64,000 nucleotides of DNA from positions 154,964 to 218,963 of the forward strand of contig JACPGE010000056.1 in assembly GCA_016182605.1 (NCBI GenBank). Reading direction: 5' to 3'. The stretch comes from Candidatus Hydrogenedentota bacterium. GTDB taxonomy: Bacteria; Hydrogenedentota; Hydrogenedentia; Hydrogenedentales; JAEUWI01. A program made the translations under genes and the position numbers. Below are positions 15,767 to 27,509 of the stretch, one piece after another (the stretch's first letter is position 1; every line of letters starts with the position of its first letter). The notes under the pieces were generated by a model. That model did no database searches, was not told the DNA's origin, and saw only the letters and a list, made by a program, of their open reading frames with translations.

Positions 15767-17908
15767 CTACGCCTTGCGGCGTTTGCGGCGGGTCAGGACG
15801 GCGCCCAGCACCGCGAGAATCAGCGCCGCGGGCCACGCGGCCACAGGCAGTTCGGTCGGATTCAGGAAGTCGCCGGCGCTCACTGCGAAGTAGCCCAGGC
15901 TGCTCACGCTCGCGTTTACTTCATTCTTCGCCGTGTCGAAGGTTGCTCCGGTTACTTCGGTCCAGGGCCCCGTGGGAGACGTGGACTGCCAGAGCGCGAG
16001 GTCGCCCTCGATCAGACCGGCGATCTCACTGTCCAAGTACTGAAGGGTGATCGCCGCGCTGGTGTAGTCCGTGCGCGTGGTGCTCAGTTGCCAGACCATA
16101 TCCGCCAGTTGCGCCGGTGCGCCAATGCCCGCGATGGCGCTATTGCTCCGCGTCAGTGTGGCCGTGACCGTGCCGGCCGTGCCCCCGGTGAAGCCTAACT
16201 GCGCACGCAGCACGGGGCTCAGGCGGCCGCCCAGACCGCGCACACCGGTATTCCCCGCCGCGTAGCCCTCAATGGCCGTGGCCTCCGTGGCTATGCCGCC
16301 GCCAAAGATGTTGACCACACAGCCGCTGTTGTTGTCGCCCCCGATGGTGGGGTTGTCACTATTTTGCCCGCTGGCGGCACACTCGGCAAAGCTGTCCCGG
16401 TTCACGTCGCCCCCGGCCTCTCCCCCAAAACCAAAAGAGTCCGATGCGTTGTCTCCCAGAATGCGCACGTCGCCCGAGACGCTGTTGAGGTCCACGCTGC
16501 TTCCGGGCAGCGCGGCGCTGCCGTAGAGCACGAAGACCTCGCCCGCGTTCGCGCCCCCGGCGGGGTCACCCCCATAGGCCCCGAGGATCACATCATCAAA
16601 GCCGTCGCCATTCACATCTCCGCTCGCCACGGAAAAACCCGCACGATCCCCAGTTTCCTCGCCGAGTATGCGGGTTTCCCCGTTGCTTCCAATCGTGCTG
16701 TTAAGGTCCGCCGTAGTGCCGGGCAACGAAGCGCTGCCGTAGACCACGTAGACCTCACCCGCGTTCGTCCCCCCGGCGGGGTCGCCCCAATGGGCTCCGA
16801 TGATCACGTCGTCGAAGCCGTCTCCGTTCACATCCCCGCTCGCCACGGAAAAGCCCGCCTGATCGCCCGCGTCATCGCCGAGTATACGGGTTTCCCCGTT
16901 GCTGCCGATCGTGCTATTAAGGTTTACGGTAATTCCAGGCAGCGATGCGCTACCATAGACCACGTAAACTTCACCCGCGTCCGTACCCCCTGCGGGGGCG
17001 CCCTGAAAGGCTCCGATAAGCACGTCGTCGAAGCCATCCCCGTTCACGTCCCCACTTGCCACGGAGAAACCCGCCTTATCGTTTCCGTCATCGCCGAGTA
17101 TACGGGTTTCCCCGTTGCTGCCAATGGTGCTATTGAGGTCCACCGTGCTGCCTGGCAAAGCTGTGCTGCCGTAAACCACGTAAACCTCGCCTGCTGTTGA
17201 GCCCCCGGCGGGGTCGCCCTGATTGGCCCCGAGGATCATGTCGTCGAAGCCGTCTCCGTTCACATCCCCGCTCGCCACGGCCCCGCCCGTCCGATCAAAT
17301 GCGTCATCACCGAGGACGCGGGTTTCCCCGTTGCCGCCGATGGTGCTGTTGAGGTCCACAGTACTTCCCGGTAGCGACGCGCTGCCGTAGACCACGTAGA
17401 CTTCACCAGCGCTCGTACCGCCGGCGGGGTCGCCCTCCGTGGCTCCGCTAATCACGTCGTCGAAGCCGTCGCCGTTCACATCCCCGCTTGCCACGGAATA
17501 TCCCGCCCGATCATCTGCGTCGTCGCCCAAGATGCGGGTTTCCCCGTTGCTGCCAATGGTGCTATTGAGGTCCACCGTGCTGCCTGGCAAAGCTGTGCTG
17601 CCGTAAACCACGTAAACCTCGCCTGCTGTTGAGCCCCCGGCGGGGTCGCCCAGATTGGCCCCGAGGATCACGTCGTCGAAGCCGTCGCCGTTCACATCGC
17701 CATAGGCCACGCCCTTCGATAAGTCTGAGCCGAGACTATCCCCCCCATCGTCCCCATAGACCCGCAATACGGGTGAGGCTTCGCTTCCCGGCGTCACATT
17801 CAGGTCGATTGTGCCCGGCAAGGCCGCTCCGTGGGCGCCCGAGCCCGCCAGCATCACGCAAAGAAAGGTACATACAATTCGCCACCAATAAGGGCACATA
17901 CATTTCAC
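15767..17908 (-). CDS. FG-GAP repeat surface protein with exosortase-like C-terminal tail
   Basis: 713 residues with an N-terminal signal (hydrophobic, ending near GAHGA). Seven near-identical repeats of about 70 residues follow, each with an FG-GAP strand and the calcium-binding DVNGDGFDDVI motif, as in alpha-integrin beta-propellers. A domain of about 150 residues follows. The tail has LPVAAW, then a hydrophobic helix, then RRKRRKA, the tripartite plan of VPLPA/PEP-CTERM sorting signals. It is expected to be exported, folded with calcium and processed at the C-terminus by an exosortase-type enzyme. The repeats are nearly identical at DNA level (about 210 bp each), so copy number may vary. 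Confidence 0.9.
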   Translation of the reverse strand: MKCMCPYWWRIVCTFLCVMLAGSGAHGAALPGTIDLNVTPGSEASPVLRVYGDDGGDSLGSDLSKGVAYGDVNGDGFDDVILGANLGDPAGGSTAGEVYVVYGSTALPGSTVDLNSTIGSNGETRILGDDADDRAGYSVASGDVNGDGFDDVISGATEGDPAGGTSAGEVYVVYGSASLPGSTVDLNSTIGGNGETRVLGDDAFDRTGGAVASGDVNGDGFDDMILGANQGDPAGGSTAGEVYVVYGSTALPGSTVDLNSTIGSNGETRILGDDGNDKAGFSVASGDVNGDGFDDVLIGAFQGAPAGGTDAGEVYVVYGSASLPGITVNLNSTIGSNGETRILGDDAGDQAGFSVASGDVNGDGFDDVIIGAHWGDPAGGTNAGEVYVVYGSASLPGTTADLNSTIGSNGETRILGEETGDRAGFSVASGDVNGDGFDDVILGAYGGDPAGGANAGEVFVLYGSAALPGSSVDLNSVSGDVRILGDNASDSFGFGGEAGGDVNRDSFAECAASGQNSDNPTIGGDNNSGCVVNIFGGGIATEATAIEGYAAGNTGVRGLGGRLSPVLRAQLGFTGGTAGTVTATLTRSNSAIAGIGAPAQLADMVWQLSTTRTDYTSAAITLQYLDSEIAGLIEGDLALWQSTSPTGPWTEVTGATFDTAKNEVNASVSSLGYFAVSAGDFLNPTELPVAAWPAALILAVLGAVLTRRKRRKA

Positions 17909-17976: not shown

Positions 17977-19554
17977 TCAAGGAAGACTACTGCCGGGTTC
18001 GTCCGTCCCTCCAAACACCCGGCTAAAGTATCCCCGGGATTCTGGCGCGTCTTCGGTTTCGATACCGGCCAGTTTCTTCGCCAGGGTCTTCTTGTATTCT
18101 AGTTCCATTGCCCGCAGGATCTGGATGCGCTGGGCCTGCGGCGAACCCGCGCCGTGCATGGATTCCGTCAGGTACCCCACTGCGTTGCGCCCCATGGTCA
18201 TGTTCTCAATCAGGCGCAGCATCTTCCAGCGGTCTTCGATGTCCACTCCGTCGCGGCCCTTGAGATACTTGCGCAGCATGCCTCCCGTTTCCTCTGCATG
18301 GAGATCGCCTTCCGAGGGCAGGGTCACCATGAGTCCCCCCGCGAGATCCTGGGCGAGGCGCCCCATTTCATAGGGAAGTTTCGTGACGTGGTGCTTGCAG
18401 ACATTGGCGAGCATGTCGTCACAGAGGTAGCAGCCCGACTTGGTCGGCTTGGACTGATAGGAAGAAGCAATTCCCGTTGCGTAGATCGTCTCGTTGAGGT
18501 GGGTCATCTCCACGAGTTTGTCTTTGATGTGCGAGGCCTGGGCCGCGCCGTTGTAATCCGCGATGGCTCCGGCAGCACCCGTGAGCACATCACCCACGCC
18601 GCTCTTACAGACGTAGCTACGACGGTGGTAACAGGTGAAGCGTTCCACCAGCATGGCGGCGAAGTCATATTCGCCATTCATGAAGATGCGCTCGTGGGGG
18701 ATGAAGACATCGTCGAAGACCACCAACGCTTCCTGCCCTGCGTACTGTGCGTTGCCGCGATCCATCGTACCCTCTTCGAGAAAGCGCGTGTCGCAAGACT
18801 GGCGCCCGTAAATATAGGTAATGCCCGGTGCGTCGACCGGCACCGCGCCAACGATCGCGTAGTCTTTGTCGTGTTCGCCCAGGCGCGCGGTCGGCATGAC
18901 GATGAGCCAATGCGAATTGATGCAACCGGTCTGATGGGCCTTGGCCCCGCGGATCACCACGCCGTCGGGCCGGCGCTCCACCACGTGCAGGTAGAGATCG
19001 GGATCGCTCTGTTCATGTGGCGCCTTGCTGCGATCGCCCTTGGGATCGGTCATCGCGCCACCGATCACCAGGTTGCCGTGCTGCACATGGGCGATGAAAG
19101 CCTTGAGGTTCTCGTGGTAGTGCGTCTCGTACTTCTCGTCGATCTCATACGTGACCGAATAGAGGGAGTTCAGCGCATCCATGCCCACGCAGCGCTGAAA
19201 GCAGGTACCGGTGTTCTGCCCCAGCTTGCGCTGCATCTTGTTCTGCATCACCAGGTCTTCCGCACTTCCGGCGATATGCAAAAAGCGGTTGACCCGTTCG
19301 CCCGTCATCGGCGAAAGGGTGCTGGCGAGTTCGGGCTCGCGCACCGCCAGATCATAGGTCTCCGCAACCGCGTTGATGGACGGCCGGATGATGGGGTGGT
19401 CCACCGGTTCGTCCACGCGTTCCCCCAGGAGGAAAACGCGCAAGTTCCGGCCCCGAAGGCTCTCGATATATTCGGGCCCGGTGCGGATGGGAGCGATTTC
19501 GGGATAGCCTGGATGGGCCTGCCCAGTGGGCGTGTGAAGGGAAGCCGGATTCAT
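17977..19554 (-). CDS. 4-hydroxybutyryl-CoA dehydratase / 4-HPA hydroxylase superfamily protein
   Basis: 525 residues, start chosen at ATG 19554 behind AGGAAA. The closest match I can argue is the FAD/[4Fe-4S] enzyme 4-hydroxybutyryl-CoA dehydratase (vinylacetyl-CoA isomerase). Candidate cluster ligands are C118 and C122 (CFQRC), H310 and C316 (HRRSYVC). T209 (AHQTG) matches the known active-site Thr, at the same 87-residue distance from the second Cys. The His-to-Cys spacing is six, one shorter than the reference enzyme (H292, C299), which might alter the cluster. ESMHGAGSPQAQR is a conserved late motif. No CoA-transferase or other 4-hydroxybutyrate gene is nearby, so the substrate is open. 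Confidence 0.82.
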   Translation of the reverse strand: MNPASLHTPTGQAHPGYPEIAPIRTGPEYIESLRGRNLRVFLLGERVDEPVDHPIIRPSINAVAETYDLAVREPELASTLSPMTGERVNRFLHIAGSAEDLVMQNKMQRKLGQNTGTCFQRCVGMDALNSLYSVTYEIDEKYETHYHENLKAFIAHVQHGNLVIGGAMTDPKGDRSKAPHEQSDPDLYLHVVERRPDGVVIRGAKAHQTGCINSHWLIVMPTARLGEHDKDYAIVGAVPVDAPGITYIYGRQSCDTRFLEEGTMDRGNAQYAGQEALVVFDDVFIPHERIFMNGEYDFAAMLVERFTCYHRRSYVCKSGVGDVLTGAAGAIADYNGAAQASHIKDKLVEMTHLNETIYATGIASSYQSKPTKSGCYLCDDMLANVCKHHVTKLPYEMGRLAQDLAGGLMVTLPSEGDLHAEETGGMLRKYLKGRDGVDIEDRWKMLRLIENMTMGRNAVGYLTESMHGAGSPQAQRIQILRAMELEYKKTLAKKLAGIETEDAPESRGYFSRVFGGTDEPGSSLP

Positions 19555-21226: not shown

Positions 21227-21411
21227 GCCGGAAAGTACATTGGGGTTCACTTTTTGGCACTGATATCCTTTTACGGGCTAATCGCTTTTTTTATACCTTT
21301 AGGGTATACTCCAGAACAGAGGATTGAAAATTGACGGTGGGGGCGCTGGGCAAATAGTTGACGGGACAGAAATGATGAGGCTGTCCTGGTGTGTCCAAAA
21401 GGGGGCAACCA

Positions 21412-23847
21412 ATGGCGCACAGTTCCGAAAGTTCTCGAAAATACAGGGTGCTTTGTTCCAATTGCGGGAACCGGATGCGGGTGAAACGCCGCCATTTCGG
21501 CCGCATGTGCCGTTGTACCCAGTGCGAATTCCCCATCTATGTGACCTACGCCAATGTAGAACCCTCCGTGCCGGCTTCGGAACGCCAGGCCACGCGTTTC
21601 TATACCGCCGAGGCTGTTCCCCTGATTTGGAAAAAGGGCGATCGCCTCATGGAGGTCTACGAGGTCCGTGAACTGCTCGGCGAGGGCGGCATGGGCACGG
21701 TCCACAAGGTCTACCACCGAGGCTGGGGGATGGACCTCGCCGTGAAGACTCCCAAGTACGCCGCCAGTAAAGACGAGTTCTGGCTGGAACTCTTCGAACA
21801 CGAATGTGAAACATGGATCAATCTCCCGCCCTTCGAACATGTGGTGAACTGTCACTATGTTCGCCGGCTTGGGGGAGTCCCCCGGGTTTTCGTGGAGTTT
21901 GTTCCGGGGGATGACCTGAGTTCCCTGTGCAAGCGGAAAGTCTTCTACAATGACGGAAAGCAGGAAACACAACGCCGCATCCTCGATGTGCTCATCCAGT
22001 TCGCATGGGGTTTGCATCATGCCCACGAACGGGGGGTAATGCATCAGGACGTCAAGCCCTCCAATGTGCTCGTTACCCGCGACAATCTGGCCAAGGTCAC
22101 CGACTTTGGTCTTGCACGCTTCCTGTACCCGGATGCGGACCCCGTGCCGTCGCGCCACACACCACTCGGCATCGGTGGCCCCAGTGGCGGCACCCCCGTG
22201 TACATGGCGCCAGACGGGGAGAATGGATACGGGAAGGGTCTTCAGGCCGATGTGTGGAGTTGGGCGCTTTCGGTGATGCAGATTTATGCGGGGAAAGTCT
22301 TCTGGCAAGAGGGGAAAGCGGCTGCGCAGGCCCTTGAGCTGCTCGTGAATCGCGGCGGTTATTACACCGAGATTCCCGCGATGCCCCATGATCTGCAAGC
22401 CCTGCTGTGGCGCTGTCTCACGCTCGATCCGGAGAAGCGCCCGCTGACCATGCTGGAAATCGCTGGTGAGTTGGAATCGATCTACGAGAGCGAAATGGGA
22501 AACGCCTACTTCCGGAAACGCCCGGACTATCAGGAAGCCGGCCTGAACCAACAAAACAACCGTGCTGTTTCGCTGGTGGATTTGGGCCGCCGCGAGGAAG
22601 CGCTGACCCTCTGGGATTCCATCATTGAAAGCGACGGCACCCACCCGGAGGCGGTCTACAACCGGGAGCTGTATCTCTGGCGGTCGGGCCAGGTGAGCGA
22701 AAAAAATATTGTGAAGACCCTGTACGATCTGAGCGAATCGCGAACGGGAAACTGGACGCCACGCTACCTGCTTGCGCGGGTCTTGATGGAACAGGGCGAC
22801 TTTGGGCATGCCTTGGGGATTCTGAACACCTTGCAGGTTTCACGGCCGGGCGACCGGGAAATTGCCCATGCGCGGGCCGTGGCCAAGGAGCAGGAGAAGC
22901 GCGAACTCGGGCTGCGCTGGGAGCGGGTGGCCCACTCCTCCCCGATCACGGTGCTCGCCATGCACCCGGCAGGCGCCTATGTGGCGACCGCCTGCGAAGA
23001 GGGAAAGATCCGGATCTGGTCTGCTGCCGGTGGGGAAAAGGTGGAGACCCTGGAGGGGCACAGCGACGCCGTGCTGGGTCTGTGTTTCAGCAGCAGCGGG
23101 ATCTTGCTGGCCAGTTGCGGCCAGGACCAGGCCATCCGAATCTGGAATGCAAAGGACAAGACCTGCATCGCGGCACTGGTGGGGCACGTGCGCACCGTGA
23201 ATGGAGTAATCTTCCTCAACAAGGACCGGGATCTGTTGTCCTTTGCCGCGGATGGCTCGATCAAGCTCTGGGATGTGGCCTCGGGACGCTGCATCGAAAC
23301 CTTCCGGGGCCATCTGAACGCCGTCCTGAATGCCGCCCTCAGTTCGAACCACCGCTATGCCCTGAGCGGCGGCCGGGATGCCGCCGTAAAGTTGTGGGAC
23401 CTGCAAGAAAAGACCCTGATCCGATCCTACTCCGGGAATGGCGGGCCCGTGACGGCGCTTGCCGCTGGACAGCACCGCCCCACGGTAGTCACGGCGAACG
23501 GGAATGTGATCAATGTCTGGAACATGCGCGATGGCGCTGTCGCGCGGGAGTTGCACGGTCACACCTCCACGGTGGATCAACTGCATCTCTTCGAACCGTC
23601 GCCCTTGCTTCTTTCCGCCAGTTCAGGGACGGTGCGCCTGTGGAATCTGGAAACCGGGCAATGTATTCGAAGCTACAAGGCGGCCAGCCCGATTGCCATT
23701 TCTCCCACCGGAGAACACCTGTATTCGGGAACGGGCAACGGGCATTTGTGCTGCCATTCCGCGGGCCTCTGCGAAGAAGTGGTGCTCGCGCCCTTCGCCC
23801 TGTCCGCCTGCTGCAAGCCCCCTCCGGAGATGGCGGCGCTTTCGTAG
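21412..23847 (+). CDS. Zinc-ribbon / Ser-Thr protein kinase / WD40 repeat protein
   Basis: 811 residues from ATG 21412, preferred over GTG 21391 because AAAAGGGGG lies just upstream. Order: zinc ribbon (C15-x2-C18 and C35-x2-C38); Hanks-type kinase about 80-370, with ELLGEGGMGTV, Lys112 (AVK), catalytic loop MHQDVKPSN and DFG at 231-233; a TPR-like helical part; then about seven WD40 repeats from residue 500 on (KIRIWS, AIRIWN, SIKLWD, AVKLWD and similar). The catalytic loop reads HQD instead of HRD, a non-RD kinase. There is no obvious transmembrane segment, so it is probably a cytosolic signalling scaffold; substrates are unknown. Confidence 0.9.
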   Translation: MAHSSESSRKYRVLCSNCGNRMRVKRRHFGRMCRCTQCEFPIYVTYANVEPSVPASERQATRFYTAEAVPLIWKKGDRLMEVYEVRELLGEGGMGTVHKVYHRGWGMDLAVKTPKYAASKDEFWLELFEHECETWINLPPFEHVVNCHYVRRLGGVPRVFVEFVPGDDLSSLCKRKVFYNDGKQETQRRILDVLIQFAWGLHHAHERGVMHQDVKPSNVLVTRDNLAKVTDFGLARFLYPDADPVPSRHTPLGIGGPSGGTPVYMAPDGENGYGKGLQADVWSWALSVMQIYAGKVFWQEGKAAAQALELLVNRGGYYTEIPAMPHDLQALLWRCLTLDPEKRPLTMLEIAGELESIYESEMGNAYFRKRPDYQEAGLNQQNNRAVSLVDLGRREEALTLWDSIIESDGTHPEAVYNRELYLWRSGQVSEKNIVKTLYDLSESRTGNWTPRYLLARVLMEQGDFGHALGILNTLQVSRPGDREIAHARAVAKEQEKRELGLRWERVAHSSPITVLAMHPAGAYVATACEEGKIRIWSAAGGEKVETLEGHSDAVLGLCFSSSGILLASCGQDQAIRIWNAKDKTCIAALVGHVRTVNGVIFLNKDRDLLSFAADGSIKLWDVASGRCIETFRGHLNAVLNAALSSNHRYALSGGRDAAVKLWDLQEKTLIRSYSGNGGPVTALAAGQHRPTVVTANGNVINVWNMRDGAVARELHGHTSTVDQLHLFEPSPLLLSASSGTVRLWNLETGQCIRSYKAASPIAISPTGEHLYSGTGNGHLCCHSAGLCEEVVLAPFALSACCKPPPEMAALS

Positions 23848-24950: not shown

Positions 24951-27509
24951 TCAATCCCCAACCTGCTTGCGGTTGAGTTGATCGATCTTTTTGCGGATGC
25001 GGGAGACCTTGGGATGATTCTTGCCCAAGAGCCGTTCATAGGCATCCAGGGACTGCATCAGATTGGCAATGGCCTTCACCGAATCGCCCAGGTGGGCCTG
25101 GGCGGAACCGATATAGTAGATGTCGCGCGCCACGTTTCCGTGATACTCGCCATAGCGGTTGCGATCGATGATGAGGGCGCGCTGGTAGTAGACCAGGGCG
25201 TCTTCATGCCGGTCGAGCGCCTGCAGGCACCGTCCCAGCCGGTTGAGCACCGTGGCCAGAAGATCCTGGGTGAGGGCCTTGTACTTGGCGTCGAGATAGA
25301 GGGCCCGCTCGAAATTGTCGATCGCATCCGGGAAACGCGCCGTGTCGGCATGGAGCCGCCCCAGATTAATGTAGTCGGTCACCAGTTCATCGCAATCCGG
25401 CCCCTTCAACTCCATCGTGATATCGCGCGCCATTTCAAAATGGGTCAGGGCCTCGTCGAATTCCTCACACAATTGGCACGCGCGGCCCAGAAAGCTGCGC
25501 ACCCGCCCCGTTTGATACCCGCGCGGCCCCTCCAGGCCGATACTCAGTTGCAACGCCTCTTCAAAGGACTCCTTCGCCTCCATATTGCGTTCTTGCGCGC
25601 GGTAGACGCGGCCCAGCGTCATGAGTTCGCGCAGCAGGTCGCAGTGCGGCTCGTTATAGAGTTCCCGGGTGAGCCCCAGGGCGCGCTCCACCTGGGTCTG
25701 GGCTTCGAGGGGCTTCTCCATATCCATCAAGACCATGGCGGCGTTGTTCAGATAGTGGGTTATCCGTGCCGTGTTCGGGTGCTCGGTGTTTTCCTCGGAG
25801 AGGATCGCACTTTCAAAGCACTTGAGCGCCTTGGGGAGCCGGCCCTCCCTGTGCCAGATCTTGCCCACGCTGTTCAGGCTTTCCGCGACCAGCGGGTGAT
25901 TCCAGGAATAGACATTCTGAAAGATCGGTATGGCCCGCGAGTAGGCCGTGCGCGCCCCGGACAGGTCCTCCATCTCCATCAGCACATTGCACAGATTGTA
26001 GACCGGGAGGGTGAGCATTGACTCGTCGGAGGGGTTGTAGAAGTCCTCGCGGGTCTGGCCAAAGAGCGACTCTATGATGGAGAAGGCTTTTTCGTAGCAG
26101 CGCCGTGCTTCTTTCAGGCGCTTTTGCCCCTGATGGACCACGCCCAGGTTGTTGATGCGCGCGGCGACGACCGGATGCAGATCGCCATGAAGCCGGCGCG
26201 CCAGGGCAATCGAACGTTCATAACAGACCTGGGCCTCCACGGGCTCATTGCAGCCGTAGAGATACAGGCCCACCTGGTTGAGGAGGGCGCCGGTAAGTTC
26301 CGGTTCTATCTCATAAGAGCCGGCATGATAGGCCGCCGTGAGCGAATGCCCCAGGAGACGGGTGCACCCGGGTATGGCGTGGGTGTAGGCCTGCTCCACG
26401 GGAAAGGCGGACTCTGTGGCGCGCAGGGCCGCCGCCGCCCAGGTGTGGCGCTGCTCCTGGTTCATGAGTTCGCGCGTTATCACCTGGATCAGCGGATGGG
26501 TCTCCAGGGAATGCTCATGCAGAGAGACCAGCCCCAGGCTCTTCAGCGCGCCGATCAATTTGTTGGTGCTCTCCGGGTTGGAGAGGTGTTTGCCCAGCCG
26601 CGGCGGCAGGGACTCCGCAGCCCCCTTGAGAAAGGGCAGGGAAATGTCCTCCGGGGAGAGATAGGCGCAAAAGGCCGCAAGATCGAGGCAGGCCAGGTTC
26701 GTCTTGGCCAGGTGGTCGAAGTGGGTGAGGAGGATGGCCGCAAGCAGGGCGCGCGCGTCGCGCTGCCGGGGTTTGAGCTTTTCCAACTGGGCCTGCAATT
26801 GCCGCCCGTAGTCCAGAAAGGTCATGCCGGCGCCCCGGCAGTAGGCGCCCGCCAGCGAGAGCGCCAGCGGCATGCCGCCCATGCCCTTGGCCACGGCCTC
26901 CATGGCCGCGTCCGGCGGCCGCCCTGTCATGGTGTGGAGGTAGTGCAGGGCCTCCTGCGCGGTGAAGTAGGTCACCGGGATGACCGTAAACGGCAGGGAG
27001 GGCTGCTCGTGCCGGGAGGTGATCAGCAGTTTCCCCGTGTCACTGTCCGGGAGGAATCGCTTGAAGTCATAGGGCTGTTCCACCCCGTCCAGAACGATCA
27101 GCCAGTTCCCGTTTGCCGAGAGCCACTGGCGCACCGCCTCAATCTCTTCCGATTGTGTCGGGGTCTTTCCCGGCAGGAGGCGCAGCTTTTCGGAAATCTG
27201 GGCGAAGGCCGCGGCAATCTGGGAGACGCGCTCGCCGTAGATCCACCAAACGAGGCCGTAGTGCCCCCCGAAGCGGTAGCTGTATTCCAGGGCAAGCTGG
27301 GTTTTGCCCGCGCCGCCGATACCGCCGAAGGGTTCATTCAACTGCACCCAAGAGCTGATCCGGAGGGTGTTGTGGAGGGCGGAGAGCATGGCATCGCGCC
27401 CGGTGAAATGGGCATTCCGCATGAACGGAATGTTATGCACCGTATCCCGGGACAATGCCGCCCCGGTCGATCGTGACTGCTGCCCGGTCTGCACCGCAAT
27501 ACGTTCCAC
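24951..27509 (-). CDS. STAND-type NB-ARC ATPase with tetratricopeptide repeats
   Basis: 852 residues from GTG 27509 (AAAGG seven bases upstream). Residues 36-39 have the FTGRD-like lead-in, the P-loop is GGIGGAGKTQ (62-71), Walker B is WLIVLDGVE (136-144), and a sensor-like LLITSRH follows. After a winged-helix-like region, about 400-830 is a run of roughly ten TPRs. This is the layout of signal-transducing STAND ATPases, in which the repeats sense a ligand and ATP-driven oligomerisation activates an effector. No N-terminal effector domain is present, so the output may be a partner or the repeats themselves. It could be regulatory or defensive; neighbours do not decide. Confidence 0.88.
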   Translation of the reverse strand: MERIAVQTGQQSRSTGAALSRDTVHNIPFMRNAHFTGRDAMLSALHNTLRISSWVQLNEPFGGIGGAGKTQLALEYSYRFGGHYGLVWWIYGERVSQIAAAFAQISEKLRLLPGKTPTQSEEIEAVRQWLSANGNWLIVLDGVEQPYDFKRFLPDSDTGKLLITSRHEQPSLPFTVIPVTYFTAQEALHYLHTMTGRPPDAAMEAVAKGMGGMPLALSLAGAYCRGAGMTFLDYGRQLQAQLEKLKPRQRDARALLAAILLTHFDHLAKTNLACLDLAAFCAYLSPEDISLPFLKGAAESLPPRLGKHLSNPESTNKLIGALKSLGLVSLHEHSLETHPLIQVITRELMNQEQRHTWAAAALRATESAFPVEQAYTHAIPGCTRLLGHSLTAAYHAGSYEIEPELTGALLNQVGLYLYGCNEPVEAQVCYERSIALARRLHGDLHPVVAARINNLGVVHQGQKRLKEARRCYEKAFSIIESLFGQTREDFYNPSDESMLTLPVYNLCNVLMEMEDLSGARTAYSRAIPIFQNVYSWNHPLVAESLNSVGKIWHREGRLPKALKCFESAILSEENTEHPNTARITHYLNNAAMVLMDMEKPLEAQTQVERALGLTRELYNEPHCDLLRELMTLGRVYRAQERNMEAKESFEEALQLSIGLEGPRGYQTGRVRSFLGRACQLCEEFDEALTHFEMARDITMELKGPDCDELVTDYINLGRLHADTARFPDAIDNFERALYLDAKYKALTQDLLATVLNRLGRCLQALDRHEDALVYYQRALIIDRNRYGEYHGNVARDIYYIGSAQAHLGDSVKAIANLMQSLDAYERLLGKNHPKVSRIRKKIDQLNRKQVGD

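What the first reader, a model, noticed from the sequence alone, without database searches (positions are those of the whole stretch)
17977..19554. 4-hydroxybutyryl-CoA dehydratase-like enzyme with a one-residue shorter cluster motif
C118-x3-C122, T209 and H310 line up with the known enzyme (C99, C103, T190, H292). The fourth ligand is six residues after the His, not seven. The enzyme family normally couples radical dehydration to this unusual cluster, so the change may mean altered geometry or another substrate.
Basis: partly seen in the sequence, partly recalled or inferred. Interest (0 to 1): 0.5.

Follow-up and report, generated by a model that had tools for sequence, protein, structure and literature searches.

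The report
Oxygen-tolerant-type 4-hydroxybutyryl-CoA dehydratase gene
The gene encodes a 4-hydroxybutyryl-CoA dehydratase of the same subtype as the crystallised oxygen-tolerant enzyme of ammonia-oxidising archaea, and the 'missing' residue near its iron-sulfur cluster is the normal mark of that subtype, so it is a solid but fairly ordinary find.

Summary
In detail: the minus-strand gene 17977-19554 encodes 525 residues with C118-x3-C122, T209, H310 and C316, one residue closer to the His than in AbfD (HRRSYVCK against HRQSYGGCK). The reading 'another substrate' is not supported. The closest solved structure, 6vjr, the oxygen-tolerant Nitrosopumilus maritimus dehydratase, has the identical motif. 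H-x5-C occurs in 100 of 157 proteins examined and forms one side of a single branch (100/100) on a tree built without the motif columns, holding ammonia-oxidising archaea and seven named bacterial phyla. Haem-copper oxidase genes occur in 28 of 30 short-form genomes and 0 of 13 clostridial/dehalococcoid long-form genomes tested. AlphaFold predicts a continuous helix in the short form and a broken one in the long. Likely role: 4-hydroxybutyryl-CoA to crotonyl-CoA in an aerobic bacterium, probably acquired horizontally (one close copy among 68 genomes of the phylum). The activating enzyme is unidentified.

The parts
17977..19554 (-). 4-hydroxybutyryl-CoA dehydratase gene, 525 aa, H-x5-C (6vjr-like) subtype
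   Evidence: translation; Pfam HpaB_N + HpaB; 6vjr 804 bits; model Z 57.6 to 6vjr
19189..19203 (-). codons of C118-x3-C122, the first two cluster cysteines
   Evidence: aligned to AbfD C99/C103; 100 of 100 short-form proteins
18928..18930 (-). codon of T209 (AbfD T190)
   Evidence: alignment; 100 of 100 short-form proteins
18730..18732 (-). codon of E275 (AbfD E257)
   Evidence: alignment; 100 of 100 short-form proteins
18604..18627 (-). codons of H310-R-R-S-Y314-V-C316-K317, the one-residue-shorter cluster segment
   Evidence: against AbfD HRQSYGGCK; tally; helix difference

Best explanation
The gene encodes a genuine 4-hydroxybutyryl-CoA dehydratase/vinylacetyl-CoA isomerase of the H-x5-C subtype shared by ammonia-oxidising archaea and many aerobic bacteria. 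It should bind FAD and a [4Fe-4S] cluster through C118, C122, H310 and C316, and dehydrate 4-hydroxybutyryl-CoA to crotonyl-CoA by the AbfD radical route, with E275, Y314 and K317 in their usual places. Shown here: the sequence, the predicted fold, the conserved residues, the single branch of the short spacing, and the oxidase-bearing company it keeps. Inferred: cluster and FAD binding, activity, and the use in this bacterium, which is probably the entry of 4-hydroxybutyrate carbon into crotonyl-CoA and acetyl-CoA under air. The gene probably arrived by horizontal transfer.
For: phmmer: 6vjr 804 bits, 1u8v 598 bits, against 137 bits or less for the HpaB-type monooxygenases. Model against 6vjr: Z 57.6, rmsd 1.0 over 450 residues, 70% identity; entry title 'Oxygen tolerant Archeal 4hydroxybutyrylCoA dehydratase (4HBD) from N. 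maritimus'. Identical HRRSYVCK in 6vjr. C118, Q120, C122, T209, E275, H310, Y314, C316, K317 in 100 of 100 short-form proteins. Short form on one side of one branch, 100/100 support, in 100% of 200 bootstrap trees, motif columns left out. Haem-copper oxidase in 28 of 30 short-form genomes including the window's, 0 of 13 clostridial/dehalococcoid long-form genomes (given were the window genome and the genomes of 42 of the 80 loci). In 15 of 15 loci of Actinomarina and near kin the gene has thiolase, MaoC hydratase and acyl-CoA dehydrogenase relatives nearby, and a 3-hydroxyacyl-CoA dehydrogenase in 14 of 15 (Pfam names for L041 only). In 7 of 7 archaeal loci it lies beside the ADP-forming synthetase. 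The window genome has an iron-containing alcohol dehydrogenase on the same contig whose best NCBIfam model is 4-hydroxybutyrate dehydrogenase, 332 bits, under the cut-off of 500.
Against: No pathway genes lie beside it in the window: neighbours are TetR, carboxylesterase, FG-GAP, HTH/zinc-ribbon and response-regulator genes. The genome has no PF02550 (AbfT/Cat2-type CoA-transferase; the family link is recalled) match; other CoA-transferase families were not searched. Of its two PF13607 matches the better is an ADP-forming synthetase fused to a GNAT domain that scores below the NCBIfam cut-offs for 4-hydroxybutyrate and acetate ligases; the other (47.8 bits) was not identified. 20 AMP-binding matches, several in very long frames, leave the activating enzyme open. 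The archaeal synthetase has a relative in only 3 of 8 other short-form bacterial genomes tested. Only 16 of 44 remaining short-form bacterial loci have any of five beta-oxidation families nearby, with no background rate measured. No biochemistry exists for this protein.
Confidence: 0.9

Rival explanations
1. The shortened motif changes the cluster geometry enough that the enzyme dehydrates another 4-hydroxyacyl-CoA.
For: One residue is missing in a segment carrying two ligands, and predicted helix continuity differs between the forms.
Against: The N. maritimus dehydratase 6vjr has the same motif; nine positions checked are invariant in 100 of 100 short-form proteins; in 7 of 7 archaeal loci the gene sits beside an ADP-forming synthetase, which in N. 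maritimus is the 4-hydroxybutyryl-CoA synthetase Nmar_0206 (passages of PMC11494057; that these are its orthologues is inferred).
Confidence: 0.05
2. It is a flavin monooxygenase of the HpaB type that only looks like a dehydratase.
For: Pfam and NCBIfam name the domains HpaB_N/HpaB and HpaB-1.
Against: HpaB-1 scores 173.7 against a cut-off of 480.2. All cluster ligands are present, whereas the family rows without the third cysteine form their own branch. 6vjr and 1u8v lead by a wide margin.
Confidence: 0.02
3. [quoted passage not shown]
For: Such a cycle has been proposed for Luminiphilus and other bacteria (passages of PMC9802188), and a Luminiphilus bin has the short form (L064; its row was dropped as a near-copy before the tree).
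Against: The only methylmalonyl-CoA-mutase-family match is the fused isobutyryl-CoA mutase IcmF, 1692 bits over its cut-off of 1500. A close relative of the thaumarchaeal 4-hydroxybutyrate-CoA synthetase is absent (best match 40%, GNAT-fused). Other cycle genes were not searched.
Confidence: 0.06

Closest known systems
4-hydroxybutyryl-CoA dehydratase of Nitrosopumilus maritimus (PDB 6vjr)
   Same: 70% identity over 450 aligned residues, Z 57.6, identical HRRSYVCK and the same ligand residues
   Different: Bacterial host; no synthetase gene beside it; about 20 extra N-terminal residues, the first 13 with pLDDT under 50
AbfD of Clostridium aminobutyricum (PDB 1u8v)
   Same: 55% identity, Z 52.9, same ligand and catalytic residues
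   Different: H-x6-C (HRQSYGGCK) instead of H-x5-C; from an anaerobe (recalled)
Crenarchaeal-type 4-hydroxybutyryl-CoA dehydratase relatives (e.g. L155 from G166)
   Same: Same ligand residues; 41.7% identity for L155
HpaB flavin monooxygenases (e.g. 2yyi)
   Same: Fold, Z 38.1, 23% identity
   Different: The window protein is below the HpaB-1 cut-off; HpaB enzymes lack the cluster (recalled)

Membership tests
4-hydroxybutyryl-CoA dehydratase | Fold closest to 1u8v and 6vjr | tested here: met
   Ranks 1 and 2, Z 57.6 and 52.9, of the 1000 Foldseek-ranked chains aligned
4-hydroxybutyryl-CoA dehydratase | Three Cys and one His as [4Fe-4S] ligands | tested here: met
   C118, C122, H310, C316 aligned with C99, C103, H292, C299; presence in sequence only
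4-hydroxybutyryl-CoA dehydratase | Other catalytic residues (AbfD T190, E257, Y296, K300) | tested here: met
   T209, E275, Y314, K317; their catalytic roles are recalled
4-hydroxybutyryl-CoA dehydratase | Cluster and FAD bound, dehydratase activity | not testable with these tools
   Needs biochemistry
AbfD (clostridial) subtype | H-x6-C spacing | tested here: not met
   H-x5-C
6vjr-like (oxygen-tolerant archaeal/bacterial) subtype | H-x5-C spacing and place in that group on the tree | tested here: met
   HRRSYVCK; inside the 55-row short-form group, 100/100
6vjr-like (oxygen-tolerant archaeal/bacterial) subtype | Activity kept in air | not testable with these tools
   Inferred from relatives and from two COX1 matches in the genome
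HpaB 4-hydroxyphenylacetate 3-monooxygenase (TIGR02309) | Score above the equivalog cut-off | tested here: not met
   173.7 against 480.2 bits

The most novel reading that the evidence does not exclude
The loss of one residue between the His and Cys ligands happened once. It made the broken helix at the cluster continuous and is part of what lets this lineage work in air; the oxygen-tolerant form then spread by horizontal transfer among ammonia-oxidising archaea and many bacterial phyla. The shortening would then be a diagnostic, and perhaps causal, mark of the aerobic dehydratase.
Probability: 0.3. Interest if true: 0.55.

Novelty: new member of a known kind. Interest (0 to 1): 0.3.

Why it matters
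4-Hydroxybutyryl-CoA dehydratase is considered the key enzyme of two archaeal CO2 fixation cycles (passages of PMC12794621). Finding the same subtype in many aerobic bacteria, here in a phylum where 1 of 68 genomes has a close copy, warns against calling autotrophy from this gene alone. The motif ending -SYVCK or -SYGGCK tells the short-form group from its clostridial and dehalococcoid relatives in the set read here, and it offers a one-residue experiment on how an Fe-S radical dehydratase tolerates oxygen.

Tried and rejected
Other ligand with standard spacing: none seen in alignment A1 or in the 157-row alignment. Sequencing error or frameshift: rejected, as the same eight letters occur in 90 of 157 proteins. 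HpaB monooxygenase: rejected on score and ligands. AbfT/Cat2 CoA-transferase partner: PF02550 found nothing in the genome. Dedicated thaumarchaeal-type 4-hydroxybutyrate-CoA synthetase: best match is a 918-aa GNAT-fused protein below cut-offs. Aerobic life alone as the cause of the shortening: not sufficient, since L155 (G166, contig of 2,688,317 bases, the length given for Sulfolobus sp. [quoted passage not shown] Because the short form sits on one branch, no independent contrasts exist to test a causal link with oxygen. Literature: the listings (titles, starts of abstracts) show no paper about the one-residue difference, which asked for the ligand names and the two PDB codes, found 0 papers. 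The 6vjr preprint and the 2014 N. maritimus cycle paper are not held, so whether the deletion is described there is unknown. PMC7845616 and PMC8287830 were seen in passages only and are not relied on.

Full report
What is there. The minus-strand ORF 19554-17977 encodes 525 residues with HpaB_N and HpaB domains over nearly their full profiles. Aligned with AbfD (1u8v) they fall on C99, C103, T190, H292 and C299, and one residue is missing between the tyrosine and the last cysteine.

Not unique. The best solved relative, 6vjr (804 bits), carries the identical HRRSYVCK. Its entry is titled 'Oxygen tolerant Archeal 4hydroxybutyrylCoA dehydratase (4HBD) from N. maritimus'. The AlphaFold model of the window protein (mean pLDDT 84.0, pTM 0.82) matches 6vjr with Z 57.6, rmsd 1.0 over 450 residues and 70% identity, and 1u8v with Z 52.9, rmsd 1.2 over 452; the next rows, HpaB-type monooxygenases, start at Z 38.4. 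Residues 465-482 of the model have pLDDT under 50.

Survey. Relatives came from one scan of genome contigs (83 relatives, 80 loci kept), 68 genomes of the window's phylum (2 matches at E 1e-60 or better) and 398 genomes drawn from the archaeal phylum of L034 (127 with a match at that threshold). From the 30 best matches were read, plus 40 stretches that I picked from lower in the list; the rest were not read for the motif. Of 157 proteins, 100 have H-x5-C, 43 H-x6-C, 1 H-x7-C (L136) and 13 no cysteine there; one of those 13 is L082, cut off by its contig end at query residue 315 and otherwise a short form. The short-form strings are HRRSYVCK 90, HRASYVCK 8, HRCSYVCK 1, HRCSYICK 1. C118, Q120, C122, T209, E275, H310, Y314, C316 and K317 are present in 100 of 100 short forms; E464 in 99 and A469 in 98, the rest gaps. 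Against the 14 clostridial and dehalococcoid proteins, all HRQSYGGCK, the short forms differ at six positions by my 90% rule: G116, T307, R312, V315, Q402 and Q478.

Tree. After removal of near-copies (90% identity or more) and three fragments, 101 rows were left. With the motif columns left out, the 55 H-x5-C rows are one side of one branch, SH-aLRT 100 (quick tree, which warned of long branches meeting among outlying rows). A careful tree of 85 of these rows (16 dropped: the 9 without the cysteine and 7 divergent ones) gives 100/100 and one change in 100% of 200 bootstrap trees. The window row pairs with Enhygromyxa salina (L007, Myxococcota, 78% identity, 100/97). The other short forms come from ammonia-oxidising archaea and from records named Bacteroidota, Pseudomonadota, Actinomycetota, Planctomycetota, Verrucomicrobiota and Acidobacteriota; most are metagenome bins, so single names may be wrong. 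Of the 12 untruncated rows without the cysteine 11 read HRFTAxSYR or HRFTAxSYK, the longer spacing, so the short form is probably derived; this is inference, as the tree is not rooted.

Oxygen. I gave 43 genomes (the window's and those of 42 of the 80 loci) to a search for haem-copper oxidase PF00115: found in 28 of 30 short-form genomes, including the window's (2 matches), and in 0 of 13 long-form clostridial/dehalococcoid genomes; the two misses are G477 (L005) and G491 (L039). This is one evolutionary contrast, not 43 independent ones.

Structure. In the window model one helix runs 296-334 through H310 and C316. In the model of the Anaerofustis long form (L067, mean pLDDT 88.9) the helix ends at 294 and restarts at 298, across the YGG of HRQSYGGCK. 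These models contain no cluster, and no coordinates were laid in the Python box, so ligand distances were not measured.

Function. In 7 of 7 archaeal loci an ADP-forming synthetase lies beside the gene. In 15 of 15 loci that I grouped as Actinomarina and near kin, thiolase, MaoC, acyl-CoA dehydrogenase and zinc-dehydrogenase relatives lie nearby, and in 14 of 15 a 3-hydroxyacyl-CoA dehydrogenase (Pfam for L041). These fit crotonyl-CoA to acetyl-CoA, but the 15 are close kin and count as about one case. In the other short-form bacteria 16 of 44 loci have at least one of five such families; the queries were taken from some of these loci and no background was measured. The window gene has no such neighbours. 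A relative of the archaeal synthetase was found in 5 of 12 genomes: the window's, the archaeal one, and 3 of 8 other short-form bacteria; in 0 of 2 clostridia. In the window genome: PF02550 none; two PF13607 matches, the better one a GNAT-fused synthetase below NCBIfam cut-offs, the other not identified; four Fe-ADH matches, the best on the same contig as the window and best matched by 4-hydroxybutyrate dehydrogenase, below cut-off; IcmF; and 20 AMP-binding matches. The use of 4-hydroxybutyrate is therefore plausible, with the activating enzyme unknown.

Origin. Of 68 genomes of the phylum only the window's has a close copy; the other match, G024, is 37% identical and lacks the cysteine. The G+C over the gene (0.60-0.61) lies within the range of its surroundings (0.56-0.65). 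The pattern points to horizontal acquisition, not recent by composition.

Verdict. It is a new member of a known subtype. The open and testable point is whether the single-residue contraction contributes to oxygen tolerance.

Noticed in passing
L138-L141 (G351, G424, G335, G275): In four archaeal genomes a short-form dehydratase has a second family copy beside it that lacks the cluster cysteines (HRFTAISYK), about 36% identical to the window protein.
   Followed up: partly
L136 (G187): An archaeal relative with H-x7-C (HRMSCGGACK), one residue longer than AbfD, on a long branch.
   Followed up: no
L035 (Bacteroidetes bacterium Jr-11dec17-86): Its dehydratase falls among Nitrosopumilaceae in the tree; possibly an archaeal contig binned wrongly.
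   Followed up: no
window 24951-27509 (-): 852-aa protein with an NB-ARC domain and many TPR repeats.
   Followed up: no
window 21391-23847 (+): 818-aa protein kinase fused to WD40 repeats.
   Followed up: no
window 15767-17908 (-): 713-aa protein of FG-GAP repeats next to the finding; it ends in a hydrophobic stretch and RRKRRKA, perhaps an exosortase-type sorting signal (recalled).
   Followed up: no
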